Part shown: positions 35,784 through 54,464 of the stretch, one piece after another | Numbering within the stretch: position 1 is the stretch's first letter | Layout: each line of letters begins with the position of its first letter | Assembly (NCBI GenBank): GCA_937867025.1 | Contig: CALMKH010000023.1 | Span: 1-56,385 of the forward strand | Direction of reading: 5' to 3' | DNA from: an uncultured Bacteroidota bacterium | Lineage (GTDB): Bacteria; Bacteroidota; Bacteroidia; NS11-12g; UBA955 | DNA length: 56,385 bases | Notes under the pieces: model-generated | The model's input: the letters and a program-made list of their open reading frames with translations, nothing else | Databases searched by the model: none | What the model was told of the DNA's origin: nothing | Program-made: the position numbers and the translations under genes

Positions 35784-38700
35784 TTAGTTATTTGGTAATA
35801 TAATGGTGAATCCTAAAGCTGTACTAGAAATTGAATAGATCATAACGCTGCCTTCACTTCCGGCCCGAAGCACTCCTGCCGGCCCGCTGTCATTTTCAAG
35901 AATGACTTTTAAGTTTATCGCTTTTTGTGTAAGACCCGGCTGTGTCAGTGAGATCGGCGCACCGCCGTTGCTTATGATTTCAAGGAAGCTGTTAACGAGG
36001 TCGACATTGCCCGTATTCCTGTAATTGATCTGGAAGGCATTCAATACATTGGTTCTCGAATTGGACGGACGCTGTACATCTATTACTACGGATGCAGGCT
36101 CAGTTGTTACCACTTTCAATCCGCGCCTCAGCATGGCTGTTTGTTCTTCTTTTTCTGCGATGACATTGTAAAGGCCGGTCGGTACCTGCACGAGCTTGAA
36201 TGTCGCATAAGCGACAGTCGGGTCTGCAACGATCAGTCCGGCATCTCCTCCCTGGGCGCTCGGATCAAGAGCGTTCATCTCTATATACAGTACGCCTGAG
36301 CTGTCTACAGTTGAAGGGTTGCCAGCAAATGCGGAATCTATGGCAATCCGGAATACGGTATTCTCAGTGAACTTGGCTCCTTCGATCTTTAAGGTCACCT
36401 GACCGTTGTTACCAACACTCACTGGCGTGACTTTCCTGATCTCGAAGTTGAGCTTCCTGGCCAGGAGTGTCACTTTCTGGAAGTTTGCAGTTGATGTGTT
36501 TCCATACGCCATAATATAATAGATACCTGTGTCGGCCGCCGGAATCAGTATCTCCTGGTTGCCGTAGAACGGAGTGGAGAATGCGTGATCAAAATTAGAC
36601 CTTGTAGGCACTTCGTTCAACCGGGCGTAAAGCTCATTATGACCGTTCACGGAGTCACCCTTTATGGTAATGAGGATGGATTCGCCTTTCAGTGAATCAG
36701 GAACTATCAGACGGTAATACAGGTTCTTGTCGTCATGAAGCGTATCATTGGTAAGAACATTAAGTGGCAGGACAGGAACATTAATGTCGATCGCATTGCC
36801 GTATCCGGTATTGTTTGTATCCCTGCTTTCATTGATATTATCCCTTACATCCGTGAATACGATGAAGTAGTGGGTACCGGTCTTGATGCCGTTGATATAC
36901 CCTCCGGCCGACAAATTACGCGTGGCGTTCGGAACCAGGCTCGACTGATCCTGCCTGCTTGCAAACAATACATCCGTTCCATCGAAAATAGTGTCTTCCG
37001 AAATGTAGATATTATCGGTTCTTGTACCGTTGATAGGGTTGCTTCCCCTGTTCCTGATCTGGTAGGACACGTTGACATAACCTCCGGCAATGGCGCTTGA
37101 AGGTGCAGTTACGGAACTTACGACAAGATCACCCGGCGGGGCCTGGCTTATGGTCATAACAGAGGCCTGTACGTTATTGTTCTCTGCATTATGCTCATAT
37201 TCCCTGTTTCCGTCATCTGTTTTTATCAGGACAATATATGCGCCCGTTATATCAGGTATGAACAGGCTTACAGTATCTGTATAGGAAGCTTTTTTCAGGA
37301 GGTTTCCTGCACGGGTACCATTGCCAAGGTTGATATCTGAATTGTCAATGGTATAATCTGTTGAGAGGTATACCCTGTCAGTCCATGATCCGGCTCTGGT
37401 TGTCGTATCACCCTTGTTCTCCACTTTCCAGATAAACTGTGCTGGCTGTCCGGCCGTGGCGGTCGAAGGAACATTCCAGGCAGTGATCTGCAGGTCTGAA
37501 GAGAGGGACAGGATCACCTTAATTGTTTTTGCAATTCCTGAACCGTTGCGCGCCACCCTGGTATTGTTTGAGGTGTCGTCATCATTGTTGTCATTCCTTG
37601 CATCGGTTTTCACCAGCAGGTAGTATGTGCCGCTTATGCCGTTAGGTGTAGTGTATACCAGGTTGCGGGTATAGGTGCTATCCTTGTCAAGCGGTGTGAA
37701 AATAGAGGTTTCACCGACAAACCTGTCGCTTCCGTCAAGGATGGAATCGCTTGAGAGGTAGGTCCTGTCGACCCATGTATTGGCTATGGTTTTGGCGAGG
37801 CCTACATTCTTGACTTTCCAGGTGATCGACAGATTGTTTCCGGAGAATACCGAATCAGGAGCTGTGATCGAGGTAACAGTCAGATCAACGGGCGGATAAC
37901 CTTTAATGAAGATTTTCGAACTGCGTTTGATGTTGTTGTTTTCAAACAGGTACTCATAGCGGACATCCGATGCATCCGTAAAGACATAGAAATAATAATT
38001 GCCTGCAGACAGCGCTGTTGGAATATCCACATCCTGTGTAATGCTGTATGTTGAATCCACGAGCAGGGTGGAGGCGATATTATTGGTTTTGAGCAGTGTG
38101 ACTTTAGAGGGGTTGTAAATGGAGTCTTTCGACATGTACACCCTGTCTTTCCACACCGGTATTGCAGAGCGGTTGCCTTTGTTCTGTACAGTATAGGTTA
38201 TACTGGCCTTTTTGCCGGCTTCCGAAGTATCAGGCCTGTTTACCGTTAAAACGCGCAAATCAGGATAAGGAGCAAGGTGAACGGTCATAACGCTGCTCCT
38301 GCGGGTATTATTGGTATCCTTGCCGTTTTCGTAGATGTTGTTATCGGCATCGGCAACCACATACACATACCTGCTGCCTTTGGTTCCGTCAGGAATTCTT
38401 GCAAATTTAGTTCTGAGCAGACTGTCGCCCGGATTTAATGCGGCATTATAATGAACGGTTTCAAGCAGTATCACGGAGTCAGGGTGGAATTTGTTATGAC
38501 GTGATATATAGATCTTGTCATTTCTGCCGCTGAAAATCTGTTTGCCTAAACCGTCATTTCTCACCTTCCAGTTCACCTGGATCAGTTTTCCGCTGGTGTC
38601 GGATGCCGGAACATTTACATTATAAATGATGAGATCCGGATTCAGGACGCGGGTTGTTTTCCTTGATATGTTATTGGTATCGTTGACACCTTCAAACTGG

Positions 38701-41700
38701 AGGTTGCCTGCGTCGGCGAAAACGTACACAAAATAACTTCCTGTAATGTTATCCGGTATGGTAACCGACTGCGAACAGGTTATGGTATCATCACTGCCTA
38801 TGTTATATCTCCACCATCCGCCTATGTAAATAGAGTTATTGGCATTGAATGGCGTTGTTTTACTTACATATGCCTGGTCATACCACGAATTAGTGGTGGC
38901 CGATCCTCCCTGGTTGATAAGATCGTAAGTCAGGTTTACAACCTCTTTGTTGCTGACAGAATCTTCTATGACTATATTTCTTACAATAAGGTCAGGCGGA
39001 GGGGTGAGGATAACTTTCAACGAGTCGCTGATCCTGTCATTATTGTTTTCGTTGGCATGCTCGTAAATGGCATTATAAGGATCAGTCCTGACGATTATAT
39101 AATAACCTCCTGAAATATTGTTAGGCAGGGGAACCGTGGTTTGTACCGTATATGAACTGTCGGGATCAAGGGCTCCGGTGTGCTGTAAGCTGCGGACATG
39201 GGTGCCTCCGACGACTGAATCAGAATGCAGGTACACATGGTCATACCAGCTGCTGCCCCGGGTGTTGCCTGTGCCACTGTTCTTCACAGTATAACGAACG
39301 TTGATGGTTTGTCCTGAAAATGCCTGCGAAGGCTTGATGATGGAAGTTACCTGGAGGTCAGGCGGAGGGGTAAGGCTTACATTGATGCCAAGCGAATCGC
39401 TCTTGTTGTTGTTGCCCTCATCCGATTCAAGTATATAACCGTATCCGTCTGTACGGACAATAATGTGATGTATGCCACTGATGCCATTAGGCAGAGTAAC
39501 GTTAGCGGACTGGGTATAAGATTGTGAAGCACTGAGTGAGGTGAGGTTAATCACACCGGTCAGCAATATGTCGCTTCCGTCAAGAATATTGTCTTTCGAC
39601 AGGTAAACCAGGTCGTACCAGTAACCTGAACCGGTAGAACCCGCACCTCTGTTTTTGGTGACCCATGATACCGAAATCGAATTTCCGGAGAATGCTGTCA
39701 GCGGCGAGTTTACTGTTGTGGCCAATACGTCCGGCAGGTGCCTGACCGTAAACCTTTGCACCGGTCCGGGAGTTGAGCAGGAAGGGTTGCGGGCAATGAT
39801 CTGCCACTTATAGGTTTGTCCGTAGCCCAGCCCGGTTGTGATCTGTTTGCTTATCTGTGTCAGTCCCGAATAGGCTGCCGTAGGAGGCCTGGTATTCACC
39901 GAATCGGGCCAGATATAGATATCATACAGTGTAGCGCCGTTGACCGGTGACCATGACAATGAGAATGGGAAATCCAGGTTCTTTGAGCTGTCTGAAGGGA
40001 TCATGATGCCTACCGAATCAGGAACCTGGTAGTTGGTCACCTTTACCTTAAGGGTGTCATTCAGGCGATATTGTTCGGCAGAAGCATCCGTCCAGACAAT
40101 AAAATTGTAATCTCCCACAGGTTTGGTGTTTACCTTGCCGGTAAATGTAAAGGTCTTGCTAAAGCCCGGCAATATGGAATCCGTAAAGGTCTGGGAAATT
40201 ACACTTCCGTTGTTGACCCTGTAACGCACAGGGAAATTCTTCTGCGTATTGCTGCCGTAGTTGAAGACTGTCACGTTCAGCAGTTGGGAATCGATCTCAC
40301 AGCCGTTGACGGGATTGGTGACTGCCAGGATAGACAGGTTGTTTGGCAGACTGTTGAATTCATCGGCTCCGATATCCGGCCTTGTGGCATTCCGGGTGTT
40401 TTTGTCGATATCGTCTGTTATTCCTGAGATCGGGGTTGCAGCGCTGTCAAGACTGATCAGTGTCGTATGGAGATCCGTATCGGTGATGAAATTCGGATTG
40501 ACGGACACGGAATTGGCATCTCTCGATACTCCCGATTTCCAGGCTGAGAGAGTTGTATAGTTATTGGAGCCAACAAAACCGATATTGGTACCTGATGTAT
40601 ACAGGTCGTTGTAATTGCTTAATGTAGGAACATTGTTGGCGTGTATGGCATAAGTGCCGGCCTTGTTACTCAGTATATTGTTCCTCAGGTCTGTATTGTT
40701 GGCCGACTGGAACCTTATACAGGCCGAGGTCGAAGAGCTGGCAGTGCCATACAGGTTGATGCTGTTAAAGAATATGCTGGTATAATTTGAACTGATAAGA
40801 TTTATTCCATGATAATAAGGGTCTGCAAGGGAAATGAAATTGTTGAATATCATTCCTTTTTTAGACGATGTGCCCTGGTGGTTATTAATATATATGCCTG
40901 TAGTGTAAGGGTATGAGCTGCTGAGCTTGTTATAACTTATTACCACGTCGTTGCTGACATCATTCATGTAGATCAGCTGGTCACCTGTATTAGTCAGAGG
41001 AGTAATGATATTGCGCCTTATTGCAGGGGCATTCATATACTGCATATAGATGCCTGAATACCTGAAGGAATTGATCGTGTTATTTTCAATCACCATGCCT
41101 GTTTCCTGCAGGGTGGATGAGGAGCCGCCTCCATAAACCTGTATGCCGTAGTATCCACCGCTTATTACGTTATTGAGGATCTTTGTATTATCATCCCTGT
41201 CGGAACCTGAAAGCACTCCAACCCCGTTGTAATATGACAAGGACATCAGTATCCTGTTATTCAGGATGCGGTTATTTGCAGCGCCGTTATCAATAGACAC
41301 CACTGTGCTGTAATACGAGTTGGTGGCTGACATGGTCATTTTACTGATGGTAATATTATCGGCTCCTTTCAGGGAGAAAATATAGTTGTTGTTATAATTT
41401 GGTGCACTGTATTGCAGTGTTACCTTGCTGCTGTCGCCTGATTCGGAGGTGAATGTCACAGGCCTGCTGACGGAAGAGCCGGGATACTGAAGAATCTGTA
41501 CCTGTTCATTATATGTGCCGTTTCTTACCTTGAATATCACCGTGTCAAGAACACCGCCGAGCATCAGGGCATTCCTGGCGTCATTAAAGGTATTGAAATC
41601 CGGAAGAGATCCGCCAATGGTATAGATGCCGTCCAGCCCGCTGTAAATATTGGATTTGGTGAGTGTATCGTTGTAATTCAGTGTGTCTGTTACGCCGTTT

Positions 41701-44700
41701 GGAGATGTTGGCCATGCTCTCAGGGTGTAATTAACGCCGCCGGTGAACGAGAAAGAGCCGATGCTGACAGTATCCGAGCCGCCGGATTTGATAGCCCCGC
41801 TCCAGCTGTAATTAGTTTGTGAAACACCATTCATGGTCCATTTTATCGTTGCGTTCTTGAGTGTATCTGAACCGAAGTTGTTCAGGATGACACGAACAGT
41901 GCGGGATCCGCTTGCAAACGGAGCATTGGGCCCTCCATAAGCCGATATACCGGCATCATTCGGGGATGGAATTTCAAATTCATCGGCTCCGATATCAGGG
42001 GTCAGGCTATCGCGTTTGTTGCCATCAAAATCTTTTTTCACGTCGGAAAGTGACTTTCCGGCTTTGTTCAGGTCAACAGCCCTAACGTGCAGATCAGTGC
42101 CCGACACAAAGAACGGATCGACTGAGATAGAATTGCCGTCTTTTGAGTTGGCCGATTTCAGCGCCGCGAGATCGCTGCGGTCGCCACCCCAGTACGCCAG
42201 GTATGAACCATTCGTGCGGTAACAGTTGTGGTTGGATTCGACAATTGTACCGGTAGAACTGGTGTAAAGCGCATAGCCGCTGCCGGTATGATCGAAGATG
42301 TTGTTGACGGATCGTATGTTATTGCTTGATGAATGCTGTATGGCATATGAAGAGGTGTACGTTGAAGCGACGCGGACGTTGTTGTTGTAAAAATTGATGT
42401 ACGAGCCGCTGTAATTATATATTCCATAAGCGTCATACTGTCCCAGAAGGCTTATCATGTTGTTTGAAACAATCGAAGGCCTGGAAGAATAGCTGTTGCA
42501 TGAATAGAGGTACAATCCCATATATCCTGATGGAAGTATGATGTTGTTGCCTGAAATGTTCATGGTTCCCCGTGCAACCTCCAGGCGCACGCCAAAGCCG
42601 TACTGGTACGTGCCCATAGTGATTTTGTTCGATGTAACGGCCGGAGTGTCTGTATAGTTCAGGAAAATGGCATTGTAATAAGGCGTTTCAAACGTATTGT
42701 TATGTACCTTTATATTCTTGTCGTATACTCCGTTGTTATAACCATAGGCGTAGATTCCGTAGGCACCGTTTTTAAACACGTTGGATGTGAAATGGTTGTT
42801 GTCATTGTTCCTGCTGTTAGTAATGGTAGAATAAACAATGGCGTGGTTGGCTCCGGATCCTGTGGATGAAACGCCCTCAAGGATATTGTTTTCCAATGAG
42901 GTCAATGTTGCCCCGTTCTCGAGATAGAATACAGTGGCGTAGGTTGAATTGACAGCACTGACGGTCATCTTGCGGAATGTGATGCCCCTGGCGCCGTTCA
43001 GTCTCACTGTATAATTATTGGAAGATCCTGCGGAGTTGGTCAGAGTAACAAGCGTGCTGTCGAGGTTTTCAGACTGGAACACGATGTCATTTCTCTCAGC
43101 CGCACCGGTTATGGCAGGAATATCCAGCTGTTCGTTGTAAGTACCGTTCCTTACATTAAACAATACGCTTCCTATGATGCCTCCGCGTTTCATGGCATCA
43201 ACCGCATCGGTAAAGGTATTGAAGTCAGGACTTGCCCCGCCGATGGTGTATGTTCCGCTCAAGGCAGGATACTGATTGACTGCTGATGCCGTGTCATTGT
43301 AATTCACGGTGTCATTGTAACTGTTGGGTAGCGAAGTCCAGGCTTTAAGGCTGTAAGCGCTGTCCGGATCAAAATTTTTTGTTCCCAGTATAACATGGAC
43401 TGTATCATTGGAGGCCAGTGAGCCGCTCCAGCTATAGCTGGTTTGCGCAGTCCCGTTGAACACCCAGCCGATGTTGACACTGCTGATGGAATTCATTCCG
43501 AAGTTTTTCAGCACCACTTTTACGAATTGTGTATCGGGCAGGAAAGGGGTCTTAGGGGTTATGATATCGGAAATACCTGCATCCAGCGCGGGAGGGTCAA
43601 ATTCATCCGCACCTATGTCAGGTGTTGAATCGCGCAGGTCACCTTCAAAGTCGGTGGTAAGACCTGTGTACCGGTCCGCTTTCGCATTGAGCCCGATTTC
43701 CCGGATGTGCAGATTGGTTGTTCCGGTAAACAACGGGTTGATCGAAAGTGAATTGGCATCTGTTCCGGATGCTGACCTGAATGAAGCAAGGTCCGTATAA
43801 TATATATTGTTCCTTCTTGCCAGGTTGGAACCTGATGACCTGAAGTTGTTCTTATCCGATTTCTGAATGGCTGAAGAGTTATAAATATTGATCGCCACGC
43901 CGGCTCCTGTATTTTCTATAATATTATTCAGCACATTCTGCGAACTTCCCGATTCAAGGTACATGCCTATTGAACTGGAATTTGTGGAAGTGCCAAGGCG
44001 TATGGTGTTGTTGATAAAATGGCCCCTGTTGACATTGTACATATAGAAACCGTAAACGTCACCGGATCCGCCCAGGTTCACCATGTTGTTTGCGACAAGT
44101 ATGGTATCGCCATTCCCATAACCTGAATAGATATAAATTCCGTATCTTCCGTAATCAGGACGTTTGATATTGTTCCTGGTGATCCGCACTTTATTATAGA
44201 GTTGCTCGCCCCTTATGGCCATAAAGTCGGAATATGTGGAGGTCGAGGAAATGGTGTTGAAGTCGACTACCGGTCCGTCCTGATAGATCAGCGCTACCGG
44301 ATTATAGAACTGGTTCAGGAATGTATTGTTTGTGATCCTCGTGCCGGACTCCCTGTAATTGGGCGGGCCGTAGCCATACCAGTACACGCCGTAACTTCCG
44401 CCCTCAAACACGTTCCTGTCAAATTCATTATATTGTTCGGTCGTGTTGCTGTTGAAAGAGCCTACCAGCGCCATGCTTGAGCTGGTAGTATTGCTTGTGC
44501 TGTTTTTAATGCGGTTGTTGTTCAGCTTATTGTAGCTGGCGTTTTCTTCAAACCGGAACACCACGCCGTTGCTTGAATTGAGCGACATGATGGTGAGGTT
44601 CCTGAATGTTATATTGGAGGCTCCTTCAAAGAACACCACATAATTCGTGTCGGAGAACGTGGAGTTGTATTGAAGGGTGACGCTTGTACTGTCGAGGTTG

Positions 44701-47700
44701 GAGCTTTCGAATATAACGCTTCCGGGCTGGTTGGCGCCATCGATCGGTGTCAGTACCAGTTGTTCCGTATATGTTCCCGACCTGACCCTGAACCGCACCC
44801 CGCCAGAGATGCCAGCTTCTTTCATCGCTTGGATGGCGGCCTTGAAAGTTGTGAAATCAGGCGTTGTGCCACCAATGGTATACACACCGCTCATGGCGGT
44901 TTTTTTATTCTTTATCCTGAAGGTGTCGTTGGATTTTTTCTGATCGGTAAGGTTGTTCGGCTGTGACGTCCAGGCAGTGAGATTGTTGACGCTGTCTCTT
45001 TTGAAGATGTAATTGCCGATGATCACCTGGGCGGTATCGCCTGAACCAAGGGTGTCATTCAGGGTGACGATCGCAAAGGTATCACTGTTGATCTTGCAAT
45101 GCACGCGTACAGATGTCAGGGTGTCAAGTCCGCGGTTTGTAACAATTACCTTGATCTGGACAGTGTCCGGTATAATGGCTCCGGCAGGGCTTATAAACCC
45201 GGTAACACCGGCATCCCTGGTAACAGGCACAAATTCGTCAGCGCCTATATCCGGCGTAGCGGAACGTGTTTCGCCGTCAATATCCCTGGTGACGAAATGA
45301 AGTTTTTTAGCTCTTGCGTTGAGGTTCACCTGCTCTACGTGCAGATCACTGTTGGATATAAAGCCCGGATCTACGGACCGTGAGTTGCTGTCAATGCCGT
45401 CAGCCAGCATGGAAGCCAGGTCGGAATATGAATTCGAGTTGATCTCTGTGAGGGTTGATCCGGTGCTGTAATAGTTGTTGTGGTCGTGAACAGTCTGGTA
45501 AGGTGACTGGATTCTCGCAGCCAGACCGCCTTTTGAGTTCACAAAAATATTGTTAAGTATTTTTGAATAATAAGGGTATACCAGCCTGGCGCCTATAGCC
45601 CCCGAACGCGTTCCATGCTGATGAACATTGTTGTTGGTGATATAGGCATTTTCTGTACTGTATATATAAAGGGCGTATTCTGCATTATCTCCGCCCACAT
45701 TTATAAAGTTATTGAAAATATAGCTGGAGTCAGTTGAATTGTTAGCCTCCAGATACTGAATATAAACCCCTGCATATTCTGATTTATCAGGGCCGGATAT
45801 GCGGTTCCCCGATATCCTGTTAGTGCCATACAGCTGGTAGATATAGAGACCATAGTGCCCGCTATATGCAGAGTTTGACCTTATGATGTTGTCCCTGAAT
45901 GTAAAGTTGGTTGACCTGTCTACATATAAGCCTGCATAATAGGCATCTTCCAACAGGTTGCCTGTTAACGACAGGTTGGTGTTTCCATAGGTATACATGG
46001 CCACGGATCCGTTCTTGAAACGGTTTCCGGCAAAGCTTATATTCAGGCCAGACTGGTCATTATATACCAGGCAATTGTAATAGTCATTGGTATTGGTCGT
46101 CGAGGCCGACTCCAGGACACAATGGAAGAAATCGACGTTCGATGTCCCGTTGTCAAGGGTCACAGCGCGTGTGGCCGTGCTGCTGCTTGTGCTCTTGATG
46201 GTCATATGCCTGAACGTCACCCACTGGGCAGCATCAAGATAGACAACCTCATAAGCCGAATAGCTGGTTCCAAAGCTCAGGGTGACCAGCGAGCTGTCTT
46301 TGTTCTGCGATTCAAATACGATGGCATTTTTTCTTGTGGCGCCCTGTATGGCCGGAATGGCGATGCGTTCGTTATACGTGCCATTCCTTACCTTGAACAG
46401 TACGGAATCGATAATGCCGCCGTCTGTCATGGCGGAAACGGCTGCTGTAAAGGTGCTGAAGTCAGGTGTTGTTCCACCAATAGTATACACACCGCTCAGG
46501 GCAGGTTTGCCTGATCGAGTGGCGGTGTCATTGAAATTCATGGTATCGGTAACGCTGTTCGGACTGCTGGTCCACACCTTGACATTATAGTTTGTATTGG
46601 TGAGGAACCTGTGCATGCCGATGCACAGCTCGGCAGTATCCCCTGAAAGCAGGTTGCCCGACCAGTTATAGGTAGTTTTGGCAGTGCCATTGATACTCCA
46701 TCTCACCTGTACCGAATTCAGGGTGTCCTCGCCGTGGTTCTTGAGTATGACGCGCACGCAGACACTGTCGGCCTTATACGGGAATATGCCTGCAATACCT
46801 GCATCCGCCGGCACAAGACTAAATTCGTCTGCTCCGATATCCGGATTGGTGCTGCTCCTGTTCTCGCCATCAATATCTTTAGTGATCCGGGCATCAGGTG
46901 TCGCGTTGCGGTTCATGTCCGATGAATAGGCATGCAGGTTGAGAGTGGTTTTGTAATTAGGATTTCCGAATGTGGAGGCGGAATCAAGGCTTGTAGAACT
47001 CTTCCAGCCGGCAAGTCCGCTAATGGTCGTGTTATAGTAAAAGGTGGGTGCGGTTGGTGAATAGAAGTTGTTGCGATCGGATGCTTCAATATTTTTAGTG
47101 CCGGAATACGATACGTACATAATGTTGCCCGTGCCATTTTGGGATACCGAATTGTTGCGTACCCTGATATTGCTGCCGTTGTAAATGTACAGGTTGCTGT
47201 AACCGCTGTAAAACGTGTTGCTGTACGTGCTGTTGTTATAAAAGTCTATATAATAGGAATAATACGAGTTCCATGCATAGGCATCTACATACGCAGCCTT
47301 TCCGGCGACAAGGAAGTTATTGGCTATGAGATTCCTGAAACTGCCGGTCCTGTTGACATTGTCCGTATAAATGGCTCCGCTGGCTCCATTGGGTTGCAGT
47401 ATCCTGTTGCCCATAACGGTAATGTTCCTGTTGTTATAGAAATAAATACCGTATCCGCTTGTATAAGCAGTATTTTCCCTTGACAAAAGATTGCCGCTGA
47501 TCTGTACCTTGCTAAAATAATAACAGAAAATATTCGAATAATACTGGTCGATAAAATTGCTTCCGGTGATGCTGAGGTCAGACACGGTGTTGGATGTGGT
47601 CCAGTAGAATCCCGTACTTCCTGATTTAAATTCACATTTGTCTATCTGTATTTTCCTGCTCGTGTTTCCTGTCAGCGAATTGGCCATGAACAGGGCATGG

Positions 47701-48923
47701 TTGGTTGATGTGGTGGAAACGGTAGAGCCTGATATGCGGCAGTTCATGAATGAAAGGTTCAGGAAAGTGCCGCCGATATCCACAACCCGTCCGTATGTTG
47801 AGCCAAGGGCTTCAAGTGTCAGCTGTGCAAACTTGACATGTGCCGCATTTTTGAGTTGAACCGTATAGTTAGTGCCCGATGCAAAGGACGCGTAATATAT
47901 GGTAACGTCCGAGCTGTCACCTGTGGAAGACCTGAAAGTCACGGTTTTAACCGAATCCGTTCCCGGGATAGGGCCAATGATCAATTGTTCGTTGTATGAG
48001 CCGGGCCGGATATTGATCACTACAGGTCCGCAAACACCATTCGCCTGCAGGTCATTGATGGCTGCCTGCACCGATCCGTAATCCGGATTGCTGCCCCCGA
48101 CCGTGAGCGTGTCTCCAAGGCTGGGTTTGATATATGCTATCAGGGTATCGTTCCTGGTCGCGGTGTCTGTCGCACCGTTCGGCAGGGAGGTCCAGACTTT
48201 AAGTGTATCGCGCCTTCCTGCGACAAGCGTTTTGGAGCCTAGTGTTATCCTGGCTTTGTTTGAACCCGAGCCACCTATTGTATCCAGAACGGAATTATGC
48301 CTGTATGTGGTTTGAGTAACCCCGTTGTATGTCCAGTTCACCTTGACAGAGTCGATGCGGTTCCTGCCGGTGTTGCCAATGGTGACGACAATGTTGCGGG
48401 CACCCGGACACACCCTGTAGGGCGAATCAATGGAATACATGGCAGCATCGTTGGTGGCAGTGCTTGAATATGTGCGTATGACAACAATCCTGTCAGCGCA
48501 GAGCTGTATGCCTGAGAATGTCAGGAAATTGGTGTCATTGTACTGGTAAGATCCCAGCAGGTTAAAATCTGCGGAAATCGTATCCACGGTACAGCTGTTG
48601 CATTGACACGAATATGCAGGACTGATCACACCAAGGGTGTCCCCGTTCATCATGGCATAAAAATTACCCGACCCGCAGGAGGTATGGTAAATCTTTACGA
48701 CGATTTTTGTCAGCCGTCCCGGCGAACCGTTGCCGATAAGCAAATGCTGCTTTGAGGTAAAGCAATCGTAATTGCTGCCACAAATGAGACAGCCGCTGCT
48801 GCCGTTTGTGTTGTAGTCATACACGGTGGTGTCGCGCAACTGGGCATTAGCCGGGGTTGAGGCGCAGAAAAGTAAAAAGACGAGAAATAGGGGGGTAATG
48901 AAGCTTTGTAGTTTTAGTCTCAT
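35784..48923 (-). CDS. Giant secreted protein: five beta-helix modules plus eight CARDB repeats, no sorting domain seen
   Basis: A 4379-residue exported protein. A signal peptide (about 1-27, ending ANAQ) precedes a Cys-rich domain with about nine cysteines (CLIC, CQCNSC). Five modules of about 540 residues follow, each an Ig/CARDB-like domain (DAGI, WxxNG, VWTSxPN) plus a right-handed parallel beta-helix opening with YTIGGxxPDFxTF and closing with PDIGADEF. Next come an Ig-like segment, eight CARDB repeats (PDLxVxxVxxP, WxDxxYxSxD, about 123 residues each), a pre-peptidase-C-like domain and a final beta region ending GFTIILPNN. No type A or type B sorting domain is visible, although its operon partner has one. 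The role is probably adhesion or glycan binding; beta-helices may bind or cleave polysaccharide, but no catalytic set is evident. Confidence 0.85.
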   Translation of the reverse strand: MRLKLQSFITPLFLVFLLFCASTPANAQLRDTTVYDYNTNGSSGCLICGSNYDCFTSKQHLLIGNGSPGRLTKIVVKIYHTSCGSGNFYAMMNGDTLGVISPAYSCQCNSCTVDTISADFNLLGSYQYNDTNFLTFSGIQLCADRIVVIRTYSSTATNDAAMYSIDSPYRVCPGARNIVVTIGNTGRNRIDSVKVNWTYNGVTQTTYRHNSVLDTIGGSGSNKARITLGSKTLVAGRRDTLKVWTSLPNGATDTATRNDTLIAYIKPSLGDTLTVGGSNPDYGSVQAAINDLQANGVCGPVVINIRPGSYNEQLIIGPIPGTDSVKTVTFRSSTGDSSDVTIYYASFASGTNYTVQLKNAAHVKFAQLTLEALGSTYGRVVDIGGTFLNLSFMNCRISGSTVSTTSTNHALFMANSLTGNTSRKIQIDKCEFKSGSTGFYWTTSNTVSDLSITGSNFIDQYYSNIFCYYFSKVQISGNLLSRENTAYTSGYGIYFYNNRNITVMGNRILQPNGASGAIYTDNVNRTGSFRNLIANNFLVAGKAAYVDAYAWNSYYSYYIDFYNNSTYSNTFYSGYSNLYIYNGSNIRVRNNSVSQNGTGNIMYVSYSGTKNIEASDRNNFYSPTAPTFYYNTTISGLAGWKSSTSLDSASTFGNPNYKTTLNLHAYSSDMNRNATPDARITKDIDGENRSSTNPDIGADEFSLVPADAGIAGIFPYKADSVCVRVILKNHGEDTLNSVQVRWSINGTAKTTYNWSGNLLSGDTAELCIGMHRFLTNTNYNVKVWTSSPNSVTDTMNFNDTATRSGKPALSGVYTIGGTTPDFSTFTAAVSAMTDGGIIDSVLFKVRNGTYNERIAIPAIQGATRKNAIVFESQNKDSSLVTLSFGTSYSAYEVVYLDAAQWVTFRHMTIKSTSSSTATRAVTLDNGTSNVDFFHCVLESASTTNTNDYYNCLVYNDQSGLNISFAGNRFKNGSVAMYTYGNTNLSLTGNLLEDAYYAGLYVDRSTNFTFRDNIIRSNSAYSGHYGLYIYQLYGTNRISGNRISGPDKSEYAGVYIQYLEANNSTDSSYIFNNFINVGGDNAEYALYIYSTENAYITNNNVHQHGTRSGAIGARLVYPYYSKILNNIFVNSKGGLAARIQSPYQTVHDHNNYYSTGSTLTEINSNSYSDLASMLADGIDSNSRSVDPGFISNSDLHVEQVNLNARAKKLHFVTRDIDGETRSATPDIGADEFVPVTRDAGVTGFISPAGAIIPDTVQIKVIVTNRGLDTLTSVRVHCKINSDTFAIVTLNDTLGSGDTAQVIIGNYIFKRDSVNNLTAWTSQPNNLTDQKKSNDTFRIKNKKTAMSGVYTIGGTTPDFTTFKAAIQAMKEAGISGGVRFRVRSGTYTEQLVLTPIDGANQPGSVIFESSNLDSTSVTLQYNSTFSDTNYVVFFEGASNITFRNLTIMSLNSSNGVVFRFEENASYNKLNNNRIKNSTSNTTSSSMALVGSFNSNTTEQYNEFDRNVFEGGSYGVYWYGYGPPNYRESGTRITNNTFLNQFYNPVALIYQDGPVVDFNTISSTSTYSDFMAIRGEQLYNKVRITRNNIKRPDYGRYGIYIYSGYGNGDTILVANNMVNLGGSGDVYGFYMYNVNRGHFINNTIRLGTSTNSSSIGMYLESGSSQNVLNNIIENTGAGVAINIYNSSAIQKSDKNNFRSSGSNLARRNNIYYTDLASFRSASGTDANSLSINPLFTGTTNLHIREIGLNAKADRYTGLTTDFEGDLRDSTPDIGADEFDPPALDAGISDIITPKTPFLPDTQFVKVVLKNFGMNSISSVNIGWVFNGTAQTSYSWSGSLASNDTVHVILGTKNFDPDSAYSLKAWTSLPNSYNDTVNYNDTASAVNQYPALSGTYTIGGASPDFNTFTDAVDAMKRGGIIGSVLFNVRNGTYNEQLDIPAITGAAERNDIVFQSENLDSTLVTLTNSAGSSNNYTVRLNGARGITFRKMTVSAVNSTYATVFYLENGATLTSLENNILEGVSSTGSGANHAIVYSTITNSRNNDNNHFTSNVFKNGAYGIYAYGYNNGVYDKNIKVHNNTFETPYYNAIFLNYTDTPAVTSNKITMGTYQYGFGVRLEVARGTMNISGNNIILPSGYMGLYLYSCNSYSSRPSIVSNNMISLLGQYDAYGIYNYSGSYINFYNNNVRVASTYTSSYAIQHSSSNNIRSVNNIFDHTGSGYALYTSSTGTIVESNHNCYRTNGSYLAYWGGDRSDLAALKSANSKDGNSISVDPFFVSGTDLHVRAVDLNKAGKSLSDVKKDFDGNKRDSLTPDIGADEFEIPSPNDAGISAYGGPNAPFASGSRTVRVILNNFGSDTLKNATIKWTMNGVSQTNYSWSGAIKSGGSDTVSIGSFSFTGGVNYTLRAWPTSPNGVTDTLNYNDTLTKSNIYSGLDGIYTIGGSLPDFNTFNDARNALMLGGVLDTVIFKVRNGTYNEQVQILQYPGSSVSRPVTFTSESGDSSKVTLQYSAPNYNNNYIFSLKGADNITISKMTMSATNSYYSTVVSIDNGAANNRILNNRILMSLSYYNGVGVLSGSDRDDNTKILNNVISGGYYGIQVYGGGSSSTLQETGMVIENNTINSFRYSGIYMQYMNAPAIRRNIITPLTNTGDQLIYMNDVSNDVVISYNKLSSSYPYTTGIYINNHQGTSSKKGMIFNNFISLADPYYHGINLISSNYTSIFFNSINLYGTASSSTSACIRFQSANNTDLRNNILSNKAGTYAIHANNVPTLSNYNDLYTSGTNIGFVGSNNYTTLSAWKSGVSRDANSVSVNPNFITDTDLHTTLISLDSAATPISGITDDIDKNTRNATRPDIGADEFNSLPNNLSILAVTNPVNGCEIDSQLLNVTVFNYGSNTQKNFPVRYRVNNGSVISQTFTDSILPGFSKTFTFTGKVNTKPVGDYNFIVWTDASAEQYRLNDTLKVKVTNYQVPDSVGIMIPSDSSKNLDFPFSLSWSPVNGATLYDIYIWPDSVNTRPPTAAYSGLTQISKQITTGLGYGQTYKWQIIARNPSCSTPGPVQRFTVRHLPDVLATTVNSPLTAFSGNSISVSWVTKNRGAGSTGSGYWYDLVYLSKDNILDGSDILLTGVINLTSLSASQSYTQSANVTLPNGISGIHHIIVRTDGYGYILESDEGNNNKSDSLGINVSLTPPPDLQVTSIIKPSQAFSGQTINVRYTVKNSGTGNTRGSSWYDHVYLHSDSVVGGTHVRSLQHTGALDPDSSYTVQTTVPLPNNISGGYYIIVRTDPYNAIYEHANENNNDRISDSLKVILTPPPDLIVRNIVIEDSVSNKEVVNLTYDLINQGGSATTNSWYDQAYVSKTTPFNANNSIYIGGWWRYNIGSDDTITCSQSVTIPDNITGSYFVYVFADAGNLQFEGVNDTNNISRKTTRVLNPDLIIYNVNVPASDTSGKLIQVNWKVRNDGLGKQIFSGRNDKIYISRHNKFHPDSVILLETVHYNAALNPGDSLLRTKFARIPDGTKGSRYVYVVADADNNIYENGKDTNNTRRSSVMTVHLAPYPDLRVLTVNRPDTSEAGKKASITYTVQNKGNRSAIPVWKDRVYMSKDSIYNPSKVTLLKTNNIASTLLVDSTYSITQDVDIPTALSAGNYYFYVFTDASDVRYEYLFENNNIKRSSKIFIKGYPPVDLTVTSITAPDSVFSGNNLSITWKVKNVGLAKTIANTWVDRTYLSSDSILDGSDRFVGETSIFTPLDKDSTYTRNLVYTTPNGISGTYYLLVKTDARNDNNDDDTSNNTRVARNGSGIAKTIKVILSLSSDLQITAWNVPSTATAGQPAQFIWKVENKGDTTTRAGSWTDRVYLSTDYTIDNSDINLGNGTRAGNLLKKASYTDTVSLFIPDITGAYIVLIKTDDGNREYEHNAENNNVQASVMTISQAPPGDLVVSSVTAPSSAIAGGYVNVSYQIRNRGSNPINGTRTDNIYISEDTIFDGTDVLFASRQDQSSLVPNATRNLSAGGYINGIKTGTHYFIVFTDVRDNINESRDTNNTGYGNAIDINVPVLPLNVLTNDTLHDDKNLYYRLIVPDSLKGESILITIKGDSVNGHNELYARLNEVPTRSNFDHAFSTPFYGNQEILIPAADTGIYYIMAYGNTSTANFQKVTLLARKLNFEIRKVTPVSVGNNGQVTLKIEGAKFTENTVFRIAIDSAFAGNPSTVDSSGVLYIEMNALDPSAQGGDAGLIVADPTVAYATFKLVQVPTGLYNVIAEKEEQTAMLRRGLKVVTTEPASVVIDVQRPSNSRTNVLNAFQINYRNTGNVDLVNSFLEIISNGGAPISLTQPGLTQKAINLKVILENDSGPAGVLRAGSEGSVMIYSISSTALGFTIILPNN
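36785..39741 (-). repeat. Eight tandem CARDB repeats in the 4379-residue protein
   Basis: Eight units of about 370 bp (123 residues) sharing PDL at the start, a central VKNxG motif, WxDxxYxS, and a final YxxxVxTDxxNxxxE-N-N turn. CARDB domains are Ig-like adhesion modules that often carry surface proteins. Units are diverged and alignable by motif, so they are older than the SprB copies. Confidence 0.85.
40360..48420 (-). repeat. Five tandem ~1.6-kb CARDB/beta-helix modules
   Basis: The module ends (PDIGADEF) fall near residues 696, 1226, 1769, 2313 and 2850, a spacing of 530-545 residues. Each module starts with an Ig/CARDB-like domain, then IGGxxPDF and a beta-helix rich in short NxI/NxF rungs such as ISGNxI and IxNNTF. 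The regular spacing shows tandem duplication of a two-domain unit. Confidence 0.88.
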
Positions 48924-49468: not shown

Positions 49469-49470
49469 TT
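49431..49470. terminator. Hairpin terminator at the 3' end of ligD
   Basis: The arms AACAGGG and CCCTGTT are separated by an 18-base loop, with T7 on the plus strand and a T-rich TTCTTCCTTC on the minus strand. It overlaps the ligD stop region and can separate ligD from the leftward giant operon. The large loop lowers confidence. Confidence 0.5.
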
Positions 49471-51634
49471 AATGATGAAACTTCTTTACAATCTTTTCAA
49501 GATCAATTCCCTTTCCCAGCACGGGCTTAAAAATATCTCCCTCGTTACTGATGCGGGCAAGCGCATTGAAGATCGTGAAATCCGTCATTTTCAGACCTTT
49601 TTTCACTTCCTCCCAATGCAAGGGCATTGAAACGGTGGCGCCGGGTTTAGGCCGTAACGAATATGCACATGCAATCGTGGCCTGCGCACGGTTCTGAAGA
49701 AAGTCAATATACATTTTGCCGTTCCTGTTTTTTACAGCTCTTTCAATGCTGGTGAATTTAGGTATTTCCCTGTGTACCATTGTAGCGATTACCCGGGCAA
49801 ACTCCCTGGATTGTTCGTATGTGTATTTAGCGCCTAACGGGATATAAATATGCAGCCCGTTTGAACCGCTGGTTTTACAGTAGCCCTTTACTCCCAGGTC
49901 GTCCAGAATCATTTTAGTGACGTTCGCTGCCTCTATCACCTGATCGAATGAATTTTTGTCGGGATCCAGATCGATAACGCACCAGTCGGGGTGATCAGGA
50001 CTCTGTTTCCGGCTGCTCCAGGGATTCATCTCGATACAACCAAGCGAAGCCATCAGCATAAGGCTCGCTTCATTGTTGACGACCAGGAAATGTTTGTCGC
50101 GCAAGTCGGTATCGCTGTGGTAAAGATACGTATCTATCCAATCAGGTACTTTCCCGGTAACGTCCTTCTGGTAAAAACTCTCGCCGGTAATGCCGTTGGG
50201 GTGACGGTTAAGCGACTGAGGCCTGTCTTTCAAATAAGGAAGGATATACGGAGCCACCTGGTAATAATAGTTAAGCATGTCGCGCTTGGTGACCTTTTCC
50301 CTGGGCCAGTACAGTTTGCTGAGATTAGTGAATTTCAGCTCATGCCCGCCAATCTTTCTCACCTGTTGTTTATCTGTGGGGTTGAGCAGGGTTTTCCGTG
50401 CGCCTTTAACAGGAGGTATTATTAATTTTTTTTCGGAAAGATTCTGAACGGTCTTCACCACTTTTTCGCTTGATGATGCCTGTTCCCTGACCACTTCCCG
50501 CGCTTTTTTATCAGTGCGCATGCCTTCAAATGAGGGGTGTCGCATAATGCCGTCACCGGTCATTTCGGTATAACTTACCTCGCACACCAGTTGCGGTTTG
50601 AGGAACACAGCGGTGGCGTTAGGGGGATCGGGCCTGAAACGCGACGGTTTGTTAATGTCGGGAAGTTCGGAGAAGGGCGGATGATCCGTTACCAGTGGCT
50701 TGAACAACTGCATCATTTCCTTTTGGGTCTTGTCATTAAAGCCCGTGCCTACTTTTCCGGTATACACAAGTTCTTTGCCTTCAAAGACCCCGACTAGCAG
50801 TGAGCTGAACAGTTTGGACGTACCGTCGTTTACGGTATAACCTCCTATCACCATTTCCTGGCGTTTATTGGCTTTTATCTTCAGCCACTCCTTGGTCCGG
50901 ATACCCGGGTAATACAAGCTGTCTGTCTTCTTCGCAATAATGCCTTCAAGGTTCATTTGCCTTGCTGCCTCAAAGAATTCGGCTCCGGATTCACCGAAAT
51001 TTTCGCTCATCCTGATAATGCCTTTCTGCGGCAGTATCGCACGAAGTATTTCTCTTCTCTTTTCCAGCGGCACTTCTGTAAGCATACGACCGTCATACCA
51101 TAACACGTCAAACACATAAAAGAACAGTTCACCGTCAGCTTCACTTCTCCAGTTCTGCAAATTTCCGAAATGCGAGATACCGCTGTCGTTTATTACGGCT
51201 ATCTCGCCGTCTATGATGGCATTGATGCCCCATTCCCCACATGCTTTGGTAATGGGGTAGAACTTTTCATTGAAGGACTTGTTGTTGCGGGATTTGAGTT
51301 CAACCCTGCCTTTGTTCATGAAAGCCATGGCGCGGTATCCATCCCACTTGATCTCGTAAGTCCAGCCGGGTTCATTGAACGGTTTGTCCACCAGTGTGGC
51401 TAACATCGGGGGCATATCCCATGTAAATTTTGCAGTTTTGCCCAGTGCAAGCAATTCTTCAATATTGCCGGCCTGTTTTTTTGCTGCCTTCGGCGCATCT
51501 GATGTTCTTCCCGCACCGTTTTTCTTTTCAGCATGAGTTTTCTTCCTGTTTTTGGGCGCTTGTTTCACCGCCTTGCCGGAAGGTTTGGGCGATGTCTTAG
51601 CACGGATATTCTGTTTCGGTTTGCTTAGCCCCAT
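49469..51634 (-). CDS. ligD: DNA ligase D (ATP-dependent ligase + polymerase/primase)
   Basis: A 721-residue non-homologous end-joining enzyme. Residues 1-60 are Lys/Ala-rich and disordered. The ligase domain (about 70-390) has the adenylated Lys96 in KWDGYR, DGEIAV, EGIIAKK, and WLKIKANKRQE, plus an OB-fold. The polymerase domain (about 430-715) has a YWPREKVTKRD start, the metal-binding VIDLDPDKN and KTSGSNGLHIYIPL. The 3'-phosphoesterase domain found in many LigD proteins is absent. LigD works with Ku to join broken ends; no ku gene is in the window. It lies eight bases downstream of the KGG-repeat gene, in one operon, which suggests expression under stress or stationary phase. Confidence 0.95.
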   Translation of the reverse strand: MGLSKPKQNIRAKTSPKPSGKAVKQAPKNRKKTHAEKKNGAGRTSDAPKAAKKQAGNIEELLALGKTAKFTWDMPPMLATLVDKPFNEPGWTYEIKWDGYRAMAFMNKGRVELKSRNNKSFNEKFYPITKACGEWGINAIIDGEIAVINDSGISHFGNLQNWRSEADGELFFYVFDVLWYDGRMLTEVPLEKRREILRAILPQKGIIRMSENFGESGAEFFEAARQMNLEGIIAKKTDSLYYPGIRTKEWLKIKANKRQEMVIGGYTVNDGTSKLFSSLLVGVFEGKELVYTGKVGTGFNDKTQKEMMQLFKPLVTDHPPFSELPDINKPSRFRPDPPNATAVFLKPQLVCEVSYTEMTGDGIMRHPSFEGMRTDKKAREVVREQASSSEKVVKTVQNLSEKKLIIPPVKGARKTLLNPTDKQQVRKIGGHELKFTNLSKLYWPREKVTKRDMLNYYYQVAPYILPYLKDRPQSLNRHPNGITGESFYQKDVTGKVPDWIDTYLYHSDTDLRDKHFLVVNNEASLMLMASLGCIEMNPWSSRKQSPDHPDWCVIDLDPDKNSFDQVIEAANVTKMILDDLGVKGYCKTSGSNGLHIYIPLGAKYTYEQSREFARVIATMVHREIPKFTSIERAVKNRNGKMYIDFLQNRAQATIACAYSLRPKPGATVSMPLHWEEVKKGLKMTDFTIFNALARISNEGDIFKPVLGKGIDLEKIVKKFHH

Positions 51635-51642
51635 CAGACGGA

Positions 51643-52659
51643 TTATTTTTTCCTGGCGGTCTTTGCAGTTTTGCCGCTTTTGCTTTTTGCCTTGGTTTTA
51701 GCGGTCGTACTGCTTTTTTTGGTTTTGACTGCAGACGATGCGGAAGCTGAAGTGATGCGTGTTCTCTTCGAGGCCGATGCAGTGGCCGTGGTCCTGCGTG
51801 CGGATTTGGCAGCCGATGCTGTGGTATTCCTGCCATCATTCTTATGTGATGATAAGCCTCCCAACCGTGCTATCTTCCTGACCTTCTCGGGATCCATGCT
51901 GGCAAACCCCCTGCGGCTGGTGCCGGTTTTTTTCTTTGTTTCCGCCTGGCTTCTCGCGCCGGATCCGCTGTGGGACGAAAGGCCGCCCATGCGCGCTATT
52001 TCACGAACCTGCTCAGGATCCATGCTGGCAAAACCTCTGCGGCTTGTCCTGTTATCCTGCTCTTCTAAAGGTTCCTGGTCAAACTCTTCAAAAGCACGTT
52101 GATCTTCAGGCCAATGTGCAGGCTGGGAAGAACCCCTGCGTCCTGTTTCGCCGAAATTCGGTCTTTCCATATTTTCAAAACCCCTGTTCCGCTGTGCATA
52201 TGGGTTATTGCCAAACCTTCCGGGATTGACCCTATTATTTTTATCATATTGTCCATAACGGTTGCCATTTTGCCCATTGTCATCGAAACCCTGGTCGAAA
52301 TACCCCTGATTCCTGCCCTGATGGCGATATGATCCTGTGTCGTAATAGTCCCGTTCATCATCAGGCTGATCAGTGTAATTGCCCATATTTCCAAATTCTT
52401 CCCGATTCCTGTTGTCAAACGGAATATTGCGATTTTCCAAACGCCTGTTCTGGGCGAATCTTTCTTCTTCGTTGCCATAATTTTCAAACTCCCTGTTCCT
52501 GTCATTTTCATAATATCCGAAATCCTCATTGTGCTCATTCCTGTACCCCTGGAAATTTTCCCTGTTAACAGGCTTATTGTTACGGCGTCTGTTCTGCCCG
52601 AATCGGTCGTACAAGTCCCTGTTGCCGGTTTGCGGACCCCTGTTTTGTCTTGTATTCAT
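51643..52659 (-). CDS. KGG-repeat protein with disordered N-terminus and histone-H1-like tail
   Basis: A 338-residue soluble, very hydrophilic protein. Residues 1 to about 200 are low-complexity, rich in Asn, Arg, Gly, Gln, Tyr, Glu and Asp, without hydrophobic core. Two KGG (stress-induced acidophilic) motifs follow, each RRGFASMDPExVRxIARxGGLSSH, separated by about 20 residues. The last 75 residues are Lys/Ala/Ser/Thr-rich like bacterial histone-H1-type tails and should bind DNA non-specifically. KGG motifs mark stress-induced proteins in many bacteria. The gene ends eight bases before ligD, so joint expression with end-joining repair is likely; a DNA-end bridging or condensing role is inference. 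Confidence 0.8.
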   Translation of the reverse strand: MNTRQNRGPQTGNRDLYDRFGQNRRRNNKPVNRENFQGYRNEHNEDFGYYENDRNREFENYGNEEERFAQNRRLENRNIPFDNRNREEFGNMGNYTDQPDDERDYYDTGSYRHQGRNQGYFDQGFDDNGQNGNRYGQYDKNNRVNPGRFGNNPYAQRNRGFENMERPNFGETGRRGSSQPAHWPEDQRAFEEFDQEPLEEQDNRTSRRGFASMDPEQVREIARMGGLSSHSGSGARSQAETKKKTGTSRRGFASMDPEKVRKIARLGGLSSHKNDGRNTTASAAKSARRTTATASASKRTRITSASASSAVKTKKSSTTAKTKAKSKSGKTAKTARKK

Positions 52660-53108: not shown

Positions 53109-53447
53109 TTAACTTCCCCTGAATTCTTCCTGATTCTCGTGGTTATCGCCGCCGAGGCTGTAATGATTATTCTCCTCATCCTCACTTCCGATCTCCTCCA
53201 GGGGATCATCCAGTTCGGCGCCCGGAATATCGAGATCTGAGCCGGAAACATCTTCTTCGAAATTTTTCTCACTCATCACACCCGGAGTTTCATAGGTTTT
53301 CAGCCTGGAGGGATCTTCAGGGTCGATCTCGCTTTCTTCCTTGAATTGGTAATAAATATCCTCGCTTGCCGGGTAAGGAGGGTACCCCGGAAATTGTTCT
53401 TGCTGCGGTTGTATATCGCTGCTTTTATTTTGCTTTTTTGGTTCCAT
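53109..53447 (-). CDS. Small acidic conserved protein of unknown function
   Basis: A 112-residue, strongly acidic, probably disordered protein. The N-terminus is Pro/Gln-rich (QPQQEQFPGYPPYPASEDIYYQ) and the C-terminal half has SGSDLDIPGAELDD and GSEDEENNHYSLGGD. As I recall, this C-terminal pattern recurs in hypothetical proteins of many Bacteroidota, so it is a real conserved gene. No catalytic residue is evident. It lies on the same strand as, and upstream of, the KGG-ligD pair, about 450 bases away. Confidence 0.7.
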   Translation of the reverse strand: MEPKKQNKSSDIQPQQEQFPGYPPYPASEDIYYQFKEESEIDPEDPSRLKTYETPGVMSEKNFEEDVSGSDLDIPGAELDDPLEEIGSEDEENNHYSLGGDNHENQEEFRGS

Positions 53448-53575: not shown

Positions 53576-54040
53576 CTACACGCCCAGGTTCAGCATAAAA
53601 AAATCCCTTTTCAGGTATGGCTCCTGGCAATGGCCGTTGAATGTTATTATTTTATGCAGTATCCGTTTGAGAACGTTAAAGTCATGCGGTTTCTTTATGC
53701 ATACGTTAGCGCCCGACACCAGTAGTTCTTCCACATCGTTTTCATCGGTTGCAGTAGAATACATGCAAATGCAGAGGTCCTTGTACCGTTCATTCTGCCG
53801 TATGTTTACAAGGCATTCCCTTCCGCCCATGACAGGCATATTCATATCCAGGAACAGGATATCCGGGATAGGTTCTGAGTTATCCAGATAGTCCAGGGTC
53901 TCCCGGCCATTCCTTACCGTGTGGATATCAACATCCAGGTTCAATTCTCCGAATGCTTCAAGGAAGGTATTGGTGTCATCAGTATCGTCATCAGCGAACA
54001 ATACTGAAAACTGTTTGTTTTCTTTTAGTTTACCTTTCAT
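53576..54040 (-). CDS. Single-domain response regulator (CheY-like)
   Basis: A 154-residue stand-alone receiver domain. It has the acidic triad FADDDTDD, the phosphoacceptor Asp65 in LFLDMNMPV, a Thr switch in MYSTATDE and the Lys in CIKKPHD. There is no output domain, so it acts through protein contacts or in a phosphorelay. The open frame extends 41 codons further upstream, but these do not resemble the family and ATG 54040 gives the usual start before the first strand. No kinase is adjacent; the kinase at 819-1850, which also lacks a partner, is too far away to link on position alone. Confidence 0.88.
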   Translation of the reverse strand: MKGKLKENKQFSVLFADDDTDDTNTFLEAFGELNLDVDIHTVRNGRETLDYLDNSEPIPDILFLDMNMPVMGGRECLVNIRQNERYKDLCICMYSTATDENDVEELLVSGANVCIKKPHDFNVLKRILHKIITFNGHCQEPYLKRDFFMLNLGV

Positions 54041-54464
54041 GGAGATAAAATTTTTTAGTTTGACTACTAATTGAAAATAGCAAATTTGAGATATGCAATC
54101 CTCAACCATATTATAACATTTTGGAATTAACTTGTATTTAATGCCTCTTTGCCGGAGGTGCATTCTTCCTTGCTCAGGTAAAACGGTTAGCCTGGTGTGC
54201 CTGGCACTCTGTGTAATTAAGCGTGGTGAAGCCTGCCTGTGCAGTGGATCAGCGACACGTTCGGAAAATGGAGGATGGGATGGTAATAATGATGATGCGT
54301 TTCATAGTGAGGCAATATTAATCTAATTATTTTATAATTGGAAGAAAAATATGTTTTTTTATTTAGCATGTATGATCTGCATGCCCGTATTAAATTATAA
54401 GATAAACATGCCAGGATATAATCGCATATATCCGCACGGGGTTCAAATTTGCATTAAAAATACC
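54041..54464. other. Divergent intergenic region upstream of the SDR gene
   Basis: About 420 bases with the 5' regions of the receiver and SDR genes. A CAAATTTG (one mismatch to TAnnTTTG) at about 54444-54451 could drive the SDR gene. A 64-codon plus-strand frame at 54132-54326 is Cys-rich and low in protein-like features and is not called. Confidence 0.4.

What the first reader, a model, noticed from the sequence alone, without database searches (positions are those of the whole stretch)
49469..52659. KGG/histone-H1-like disordered protein in an operon with LigD
The protein combines a low-complexity N/R/G/Q/Y-rich region, two KGG stress motifs and an H1-like tail, and is eight bases upstream of ligD, whose own N-terminus is Lys-rich. 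This suggests an accessory factor that condenses DNA or holds ends together for ligation, perhaps by forming condensates. I know of no description of such a factor in bacterial end joining.
Basis: partly seen in the sequence, partly recalled or inferred. Interest (0 to 1): 0.75.

Follow-up and report, generated by a model that had tools for sequence, protein, structure and literature searches.

The report
Stress protein gene beside DNA-end-joining ligase
A disordered bacterial stress protein of a known type (KGG) sits just upstream of the genome's only end-joining DNA ligase; its relatives are normally paired with another stress gene, so the pairing most likely places DNA-break repair under stress control rather than revealing a dedicated repair factor.

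Summary
A 338-aa KGG protein (51643-52659, -) with two PF10685 motifs and a Lys/Ala/Ser/Thr-rich tail lies 8 bp upstream of a LIG-POL LigD (49469-51634, -). Among KGG proteins of at least 180 aa in other Bacteroidota, 24 of 27 are followed directly by a DUF892 (YciF-like) gene, the layout of the yciG-type stress operon; here ligD occupies that slot. No other genome examined has a KGG-ligD bicistron, and 0 of the 80 closest LigD loci carry KGG in the flanks held. KGG and LigD nevertheless cluster loosely: within 15 kb in 7 of 66 KGG-positive genomes of family f3 (0.86 expected), amid DUF892, Ku, catalase and DUF2383 genes. That pattern points to a stress island. LigD's Lys-rich N-terminus is the usual PE-LIG linker. 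The H1-like tail was seen in no other of 60 distinct KGG proteins. The window LigD carries the only ATP-dependent ligase domain found in its genome; Ku, a separate PE and a second POL lie on another contig with no LIG. Best reading: a stress-inducible operon coupling a hydrophilin-like protein to an end-joining ligase. A direct end-joining role remains possible but untested.

The parts
51643..52659 (-). KGG-repeat stress protein, 338 aa, predicted disordered
   Evidence: PF10685 x2, E 3e-15; charge-hydropathy test, GRAVY -1.7, Gly 9.5%
51970..52035 (-). first KGG motif
   Evidence: PF10685, 38.6 bits
51844..51909 (-). second KGG motif
   Evidence: PF10685, 28.2 bits
51646..51837 (-). Lys/Ala/Ser/Thr-rich C-terminal tail (64 aa, net +18), H1-like in composition only
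   Evidence: not seen in the 59 other distinct KGG proteins
49469..51634 (-). LigD, 721 aa: Lys-rich leader, LIG, POL; no PE domain
   Evidence: PF01068, PF04679, PF21686; TIGR02776 544.9 bits, TIGR02779, TIGR02778 over cut-off; KWDG at 96, DLDPD at 555
51425..51634 (-). Lys-rich leader of LigD, equivalent to the PE-LIG linker of relatives
51635..51642 (-). 8-base intergenic gap; no terminator-like site on this strand here

Best explanation
The upstream gene encodes a long, disordered Bacteroidota version of the YciG/KGG stress protein (hydrophilin-like). It is probably transcribed with the only end-joining ligase of this genome, in the place where its relatives carry a DUF892 (YciF-like) gene. 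The likely effect is that stress or dormancy raises both the protective KGG protein and the LIG-POL LigD, which then works with Ku and the separate PE and POL made from another locus. The basic tail probably gives the KGG protein general affinity for nucleic acid; it need not be an end-joining factor. Shown: gene layout, domains, DUF892 pairing in relatives, loose clustering with NHEJ genes, no other ATP-dependent ligase domain found. Inferred: co-transcription, stress induction, disorder, nucleic-acid binding.
For: Two KGG motifs. Long KGG genes in other Bacteroidota are followed by DUF892 in 24 of 27 cases, short ones in 0 of 30 (Pfam check of three such neighbours), with catalase next in some. 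KGG-LigD clustering within 15 kb in 7 of 66 f3 genomes against 0.86 expected, with Ku, DUF892, DUF2383 or catalase in the same stretches. Own Ku locus has a DUF892 and a DUF2383 gene near Ku. The only ATP-dependent ligase domain found in the genome is the window's. YciG, a KGG protein, is an RpoS-dependent hydrophilin in Salmonella (PMC5437024, passages), and ku-ligD belongs to the general stress regulon of Sphingopyxis (PMC7083833, passages).
Against: No expression data and no recognised stress promoter for this phylum; the promoter scan gave about as many sites as shuffles. The tight pair is known from one genome only. KGG is absent from the rest of its order as held (1 of 108), so no conservation supports the pair itself.
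Confidence: 0.6

Rival explanations
1. Dedicated end-joining accessory: the KGG protein's basic tail binds or bridges DNA ends, perhaps through condensates, and helps LigD.
For: 8-bp spacing; +18 tail seen in no other KGG protein sampled; own Ku has only a short basic end (KKKKK near its C-terminus), while extended disordered Ku arms in other bacteria affect DNA binding and ligation (PMC9638933, abstract and passages); KGG-LigD clustering beyond chance.
Against: No conserved tight pair; the usual partner is DUF892; relatives in NHEJ clusters lack such a tail; the LigD leader is a common linker.
Confidence: 0.15
2. Private rearrangement: the two genes are side by side by accident in one lineage, with no functional link.
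For: Seen in one genome only; KGG in 1 of 108 genomes of the order, LigD POL in 2 of 70 of the family.
Against: Same strand, 8-bp gap, and a tendency of KGG and NHEJ genes to cluster in another family. Base composition fits the host genome, so the arrangement is not obviously recent.
Confidence: 0.22

Closest known systems
yciG-yciF-yciE (katN) stress locus and KGG family PF10685
   Same: KGG motif, hydrophilic, glycine-containing protein; relatives in Bacteroidota precede a DUF892 gene, sometimes then catalase. That YciF and YciE are DUF892 proteins is recalled.
   Different: 338 aa instead of about 60 (length of Salmonella YciG from PMC5437024), basic C-terminal tail, and ligD in the DUF892 slot
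P. aeruginosa PA2134-PA2190 stress region with PA2146 (KGG)
   Same: KGG gene and katE in one region, and an NHEJ-linked gene (PA2150) in the predicted interactome of a neighbour (PMC9262955, passages); that PA2150 is Ku is recalled
   Different: not one operon of KGG and ligD as far as recalled; short KGG protein
Bacterial NHEJ (Ku + LigD)
   Same: LIG and POL domains over NCBIfam cut-offs, a Ku gene in the genome
   Different: split: Ku, separate PE and POL on C185/C253, LIG-POL here; a survey reported only conventional NHEJ in Bacteroidetes (PMC7719229, passages)

Membership tests
KGG stress proteins (PF10685) | KGG motif over the curated cut-off | tested here: met
   56.5 bits against 20.4, two stretches
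KGG stress proteins (PF10685) | stress-induced expression | not testable with these tools
   no expression data
yciG-yciF type operon (KGG then DUF892) | DUF892 gene directly downstream on the same strand | tested here: not met
   downstream gene is ligD; 24 of 27 long relatives do have it
Conventional LigD (PE-LIG-POL) | LIG and POL domains | tested here: met
   PF01068, PF21686; TIGR02776 over cut-off
Conventional LigD (PE-LIG-POL) | PE domain in the same protein | tested here: not met
   no LigD_N match; a separate PE protein lies at L126 10689-11279
Histone H1 / Hc1-like DNA-binding proteins | match to a histone family model | tested here: not met
   no such Pfam match at E<=1; no NCBIfam match at E<=0.01; resemblance is composition only
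Histone H1 / Hc1-like DNA-binding proteins | DNA binding or condensation | not testable with these tools
   needs purified protein
Hydrophilins | high glycine content and high hydrophilicity (as worded in PMC5437024; numerical thresholds recalled) | tested here: met
   Gly 9.5%, GRAVY -1.7
Conserved NHEJ accessory gene | found beside ligD or ku across lineages | tested here: inconclusive
   tight pair only here; loose clustering in 7 of 66 f3 genomes; 0 of 80 closest LigD loci; 0 of 15 LigD plasmids with KGG within 100 kb of ligD

The most novel reading that the evidence does not exclude
A KGG stress protein has acquired a basic H1-like arm and, encoded with the only NHEJ ligase of the cell, acts in trans as the DNA-gathering arm that this genome's short-tailed Ku lacks, holding or condensing ends for LigD under stress.
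Probability: 0.12. Interest if true: 0.75.

Novelty: new variant of a known kind. Interest (0 to 1): 0.4.

Why it matters
KGG proteins are widespread stress markers with no agreed mechanism. Their conserved pairing with DUF892 and their loose clustering with Ku/LigD in Bacteroidota place them in the same stress programme as end joining, and this one operon makes a direct test simple. The split NHEJ set (LIG supplied only by the window LigD, Ku/PE/POL elsewhere) is also an exception to the published statement that Bacteroidetes NHEJ is always conventional.

Tried and rejected
Recent transfer or assembly contamination as the source of the pair: the tetranucleotide profile of the whole window and of the 49-56 kb segment is closest to the host genome among the 19 groups compared, so contamination is unlikely. 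Leave-one-out control in the same call: 12 of 14 own stretches of 8 kb or more ranked own first; L210 (6th) and L217 (2nd) did not.

A Lys-rich LigD N-terminus as a sign of a special LigD: rejected. A Lys-rich stretch lies before the LIG domain in most relatives, as the PE-LIG linker or as the N-terminus of PE-less forms; one of 80 (L059) gave no ORF in that script, and a few (for example L034, cut by the contig end, L064 and L071) show almost no leader.

A first KGG regex and a two-sequence HMM were too weak: at the cut-off the HMM missed the KGG gene of G729. I rebuilt the HMM from 170 motif hits and repeated the scan; still 0 of 80. Limits: 16 of the 80 loci hold under 7 kb upstream, and contig lengths suggest that L077 and L086 are the loci of G871 and G561, where a KGG gene lies 7.9 and 8.2 kb from ligD, just outside the flank.

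KGG linkage on LigD plasmids: 15 of 939 matching records, chosen by me for diversity from 60 rows listed, were searched whole; one has KGG, about 147 kb from ligD. This says nothing of chromosomes outside Bacteroidota.

Genome-level co-occurrence in the phylum sample (10 of 14 KGG genomes have LigD against 48 of 381 others, Fisher p 1.4e-6) is weakened by relatedness: five of the ten are one genus.

A tree of 80 LigD rows (window plus 79 of the 80 relatives) left the window on a lone branch without a well-supported sister. The AlphaFold job for the KGG protein was never ready, so disorder rests on composition. Paper searches: KGG with LigD gave none, DUF892 with LigD none, 'bacterial Ku' with lysine-rich and LigD none, KGG with Ku70, bacterial and stress-induced none; only the held open-access library was searched.

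Full report
What is there. The window holds, on the minus strand, a 338-aa ORF at 51643-52659 and a 721-aa ORF at 49469-51634, with 8 bases between them. The first has two KGG motifs (PF10685, E 3e-15) and nothing else in Pfam at E<=1, and no NCBIfam match at E<=0.01. It divides into a 206-residue N/R/E/G/D/Q-rich part (net -7), the motif block, and a 64-residue A/T/K/S tail (net +18). By the charge-hydropathy rule it is disordered. The second is LigD with LIG and POL domains but no PE domain; the ligase KWDG and the polymerase DLDPD motifs are present (that these are the catalytic motifs is recalled).

The genome. The two KGG motifs are the only ones in the 3.69-Mb, 94%-complete assembly. KGG occurs in 1 of 70 genomes of the family, 1 of 108 of the order and 14 of 395 drawn from the phylum. 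LigD POL occurs in 2 of 70 of the family and 58 of 395 of the phylum. Ku lies on another contig, C185, in the order SDR, Ku, PE (196 aa), POL; POL runs into the contig end and what looks like its remainder opens C253. PE and POL are 6 bases apart, so no LIG gene lies between them, whereas congener G007 has Ku-PE-LIG-POL. A search for the ligase domain finds only the window's LigD. On this evidence the cell's end-joining ligase is the one in the KGG operon, with the reservation that the assembly is incomplete. Tetranucleotide use places the window, C185 and C253 with the host.

Is the neighbourhood conserved? Not tightly. None of the 80 closest LigD loci has a KGG motif in the sequence held (8-kb flanks, shorter in some); 9 of the 80 have Ku, 11 DUF892, 9 DUF2383 and 5 catalase nearby. 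Of 15 LigD plasmids searched whole, one has KGG, about 147 kb away. Loosely, yes: in family f3, 66 of 394 genomes have KGG, 61 of these 66 have LigD, and in 7 of 66 (six genera) a KGG motif lies within 15 kb of a POL domain, against 0.86 expected from random placement (Poisson P 3e-5, or 3e-4 counting the two congeners once, counts typed, contig breaks ignored). The baseline of LigD in f3 was not measured. None of these is a KGG-ligD bicistron; the nearest gaps are 2.7 to 2.9 kb. The stretches also hold Ku, DUF892, DUF2383 or catalase, except that of G561, where none of these was seen.

The usual partner. In the loci fetched for KGG motifs (27, 30, 20 stretches, some chosen because LigD was near), I kept one distinct protein per locus. 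Of those of at least 180 aa, 24 of 27 are followed on the same strand within 400 bases by DUF892; of shorter ones, 0 of 30 (the length limit was set after seeing the data; the DUF892 profile came from seven proteins, four of which were checked with Pfam). The exceptions are L091, L166 and L185. This is the yciG-yciF layout. The window protein is of the long kind but has ligD in that slot, while the genome has a DUF892 gene near Ku (L126 5888-6478).

The tail and the Lys-rich leader. Among 60 distinct KGG proteins including the window's, no other has a tail of 20 or more residues with over 8% Lys. It is therefore a private feature in this sample. The LigD leader corresponds to the Lys-rich PE-LIG linker of relatives, several of which are also PE-less.

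Mechanism. YciG, a KGG protein, is described as an RpoS-dependent hydrophilin (PMC5437024, passages), and ku-ligD as part of a general stress regulon in Sphingopyxis (PMC7083833, passages). In P. aeruginosa the KGG gene PA2146 belongs to a stress region with katE, and an NHEJ gene appears in the predicted interactome of a neighbour (PMC9262955, passages). The simplest reading is co-regulation: stress or dormancy, when no sister chromosome is at hand, switches on both a protective disordered protein and the ligase. The basic tail may bind nucleic acid. A specific role in end joining is possible, since the extended Ku C-terminus affects DNA binding and ligation elsewhere (PMC9638933, abstract and passages) and this Ku has only a short basic end, but nothing here shows it.

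Novelty. A new variant of a known kind: a KGG stress operon with ligD in place of DUF892, within a split NHEJ set. A published survey states that all Bacteroidetes with NHEJ have the conventional form (PMC7719229, passages); this genome is an exception.

Noticed in passing
G000 C185 (L126 9916-11690) and C253 (L127 start): Split NHEJ locus: SDR, Ku, stand-alone PE, stand-alone POL; no LIG between PE and POL, unlike congener G007 (L132).
   Followed up: yes
L132 9621-9941 (-): In congener G007 a 106-aa K/A-rich H1-like ORF lies about 100 bp from the end of the Ku-PE-LIG-POL genes, convergent; no Pfam or NCBIfam match. Another basic protein beside NHEJ genes in the same genus.
   Followed up: partly
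L093, L095-L100, L153-L155 and others: Long KGG proteins of Bacteroidota form a conserved pair with a downstream DUF892 gene, some followed by catalase; short KGG proteins do not.
   Followed up: yes
L126 5484-5858 (-) and L132 3110-3574 (-): N/Q- and T/P-rich low-complexity small ORF directly downstream of DUF892 near Ku in two congeners.
   Followed up: no
L198 5306-7075: A PE-LIG LigD form (589 aa, no POL hit) about 1.5 kb from a KGG-DUF892 pair in G811.
   Followed up: no
window 27269-35776 and 35784-48923 (-): Two giant adjacent ORFs of 2835 and 4379 aa; the second looks repetitive and secreted. Not analysed.
   Followed up: no
window 53109-53447 (-) and 53576-54163 (-): Acidic disordered-looking 112-aa ORF without Pfam match and a stand-alone response regulator (PF00072) upstream of the KGG gene; possible regulators or members of the same stress cluster.
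   Followed up: partly
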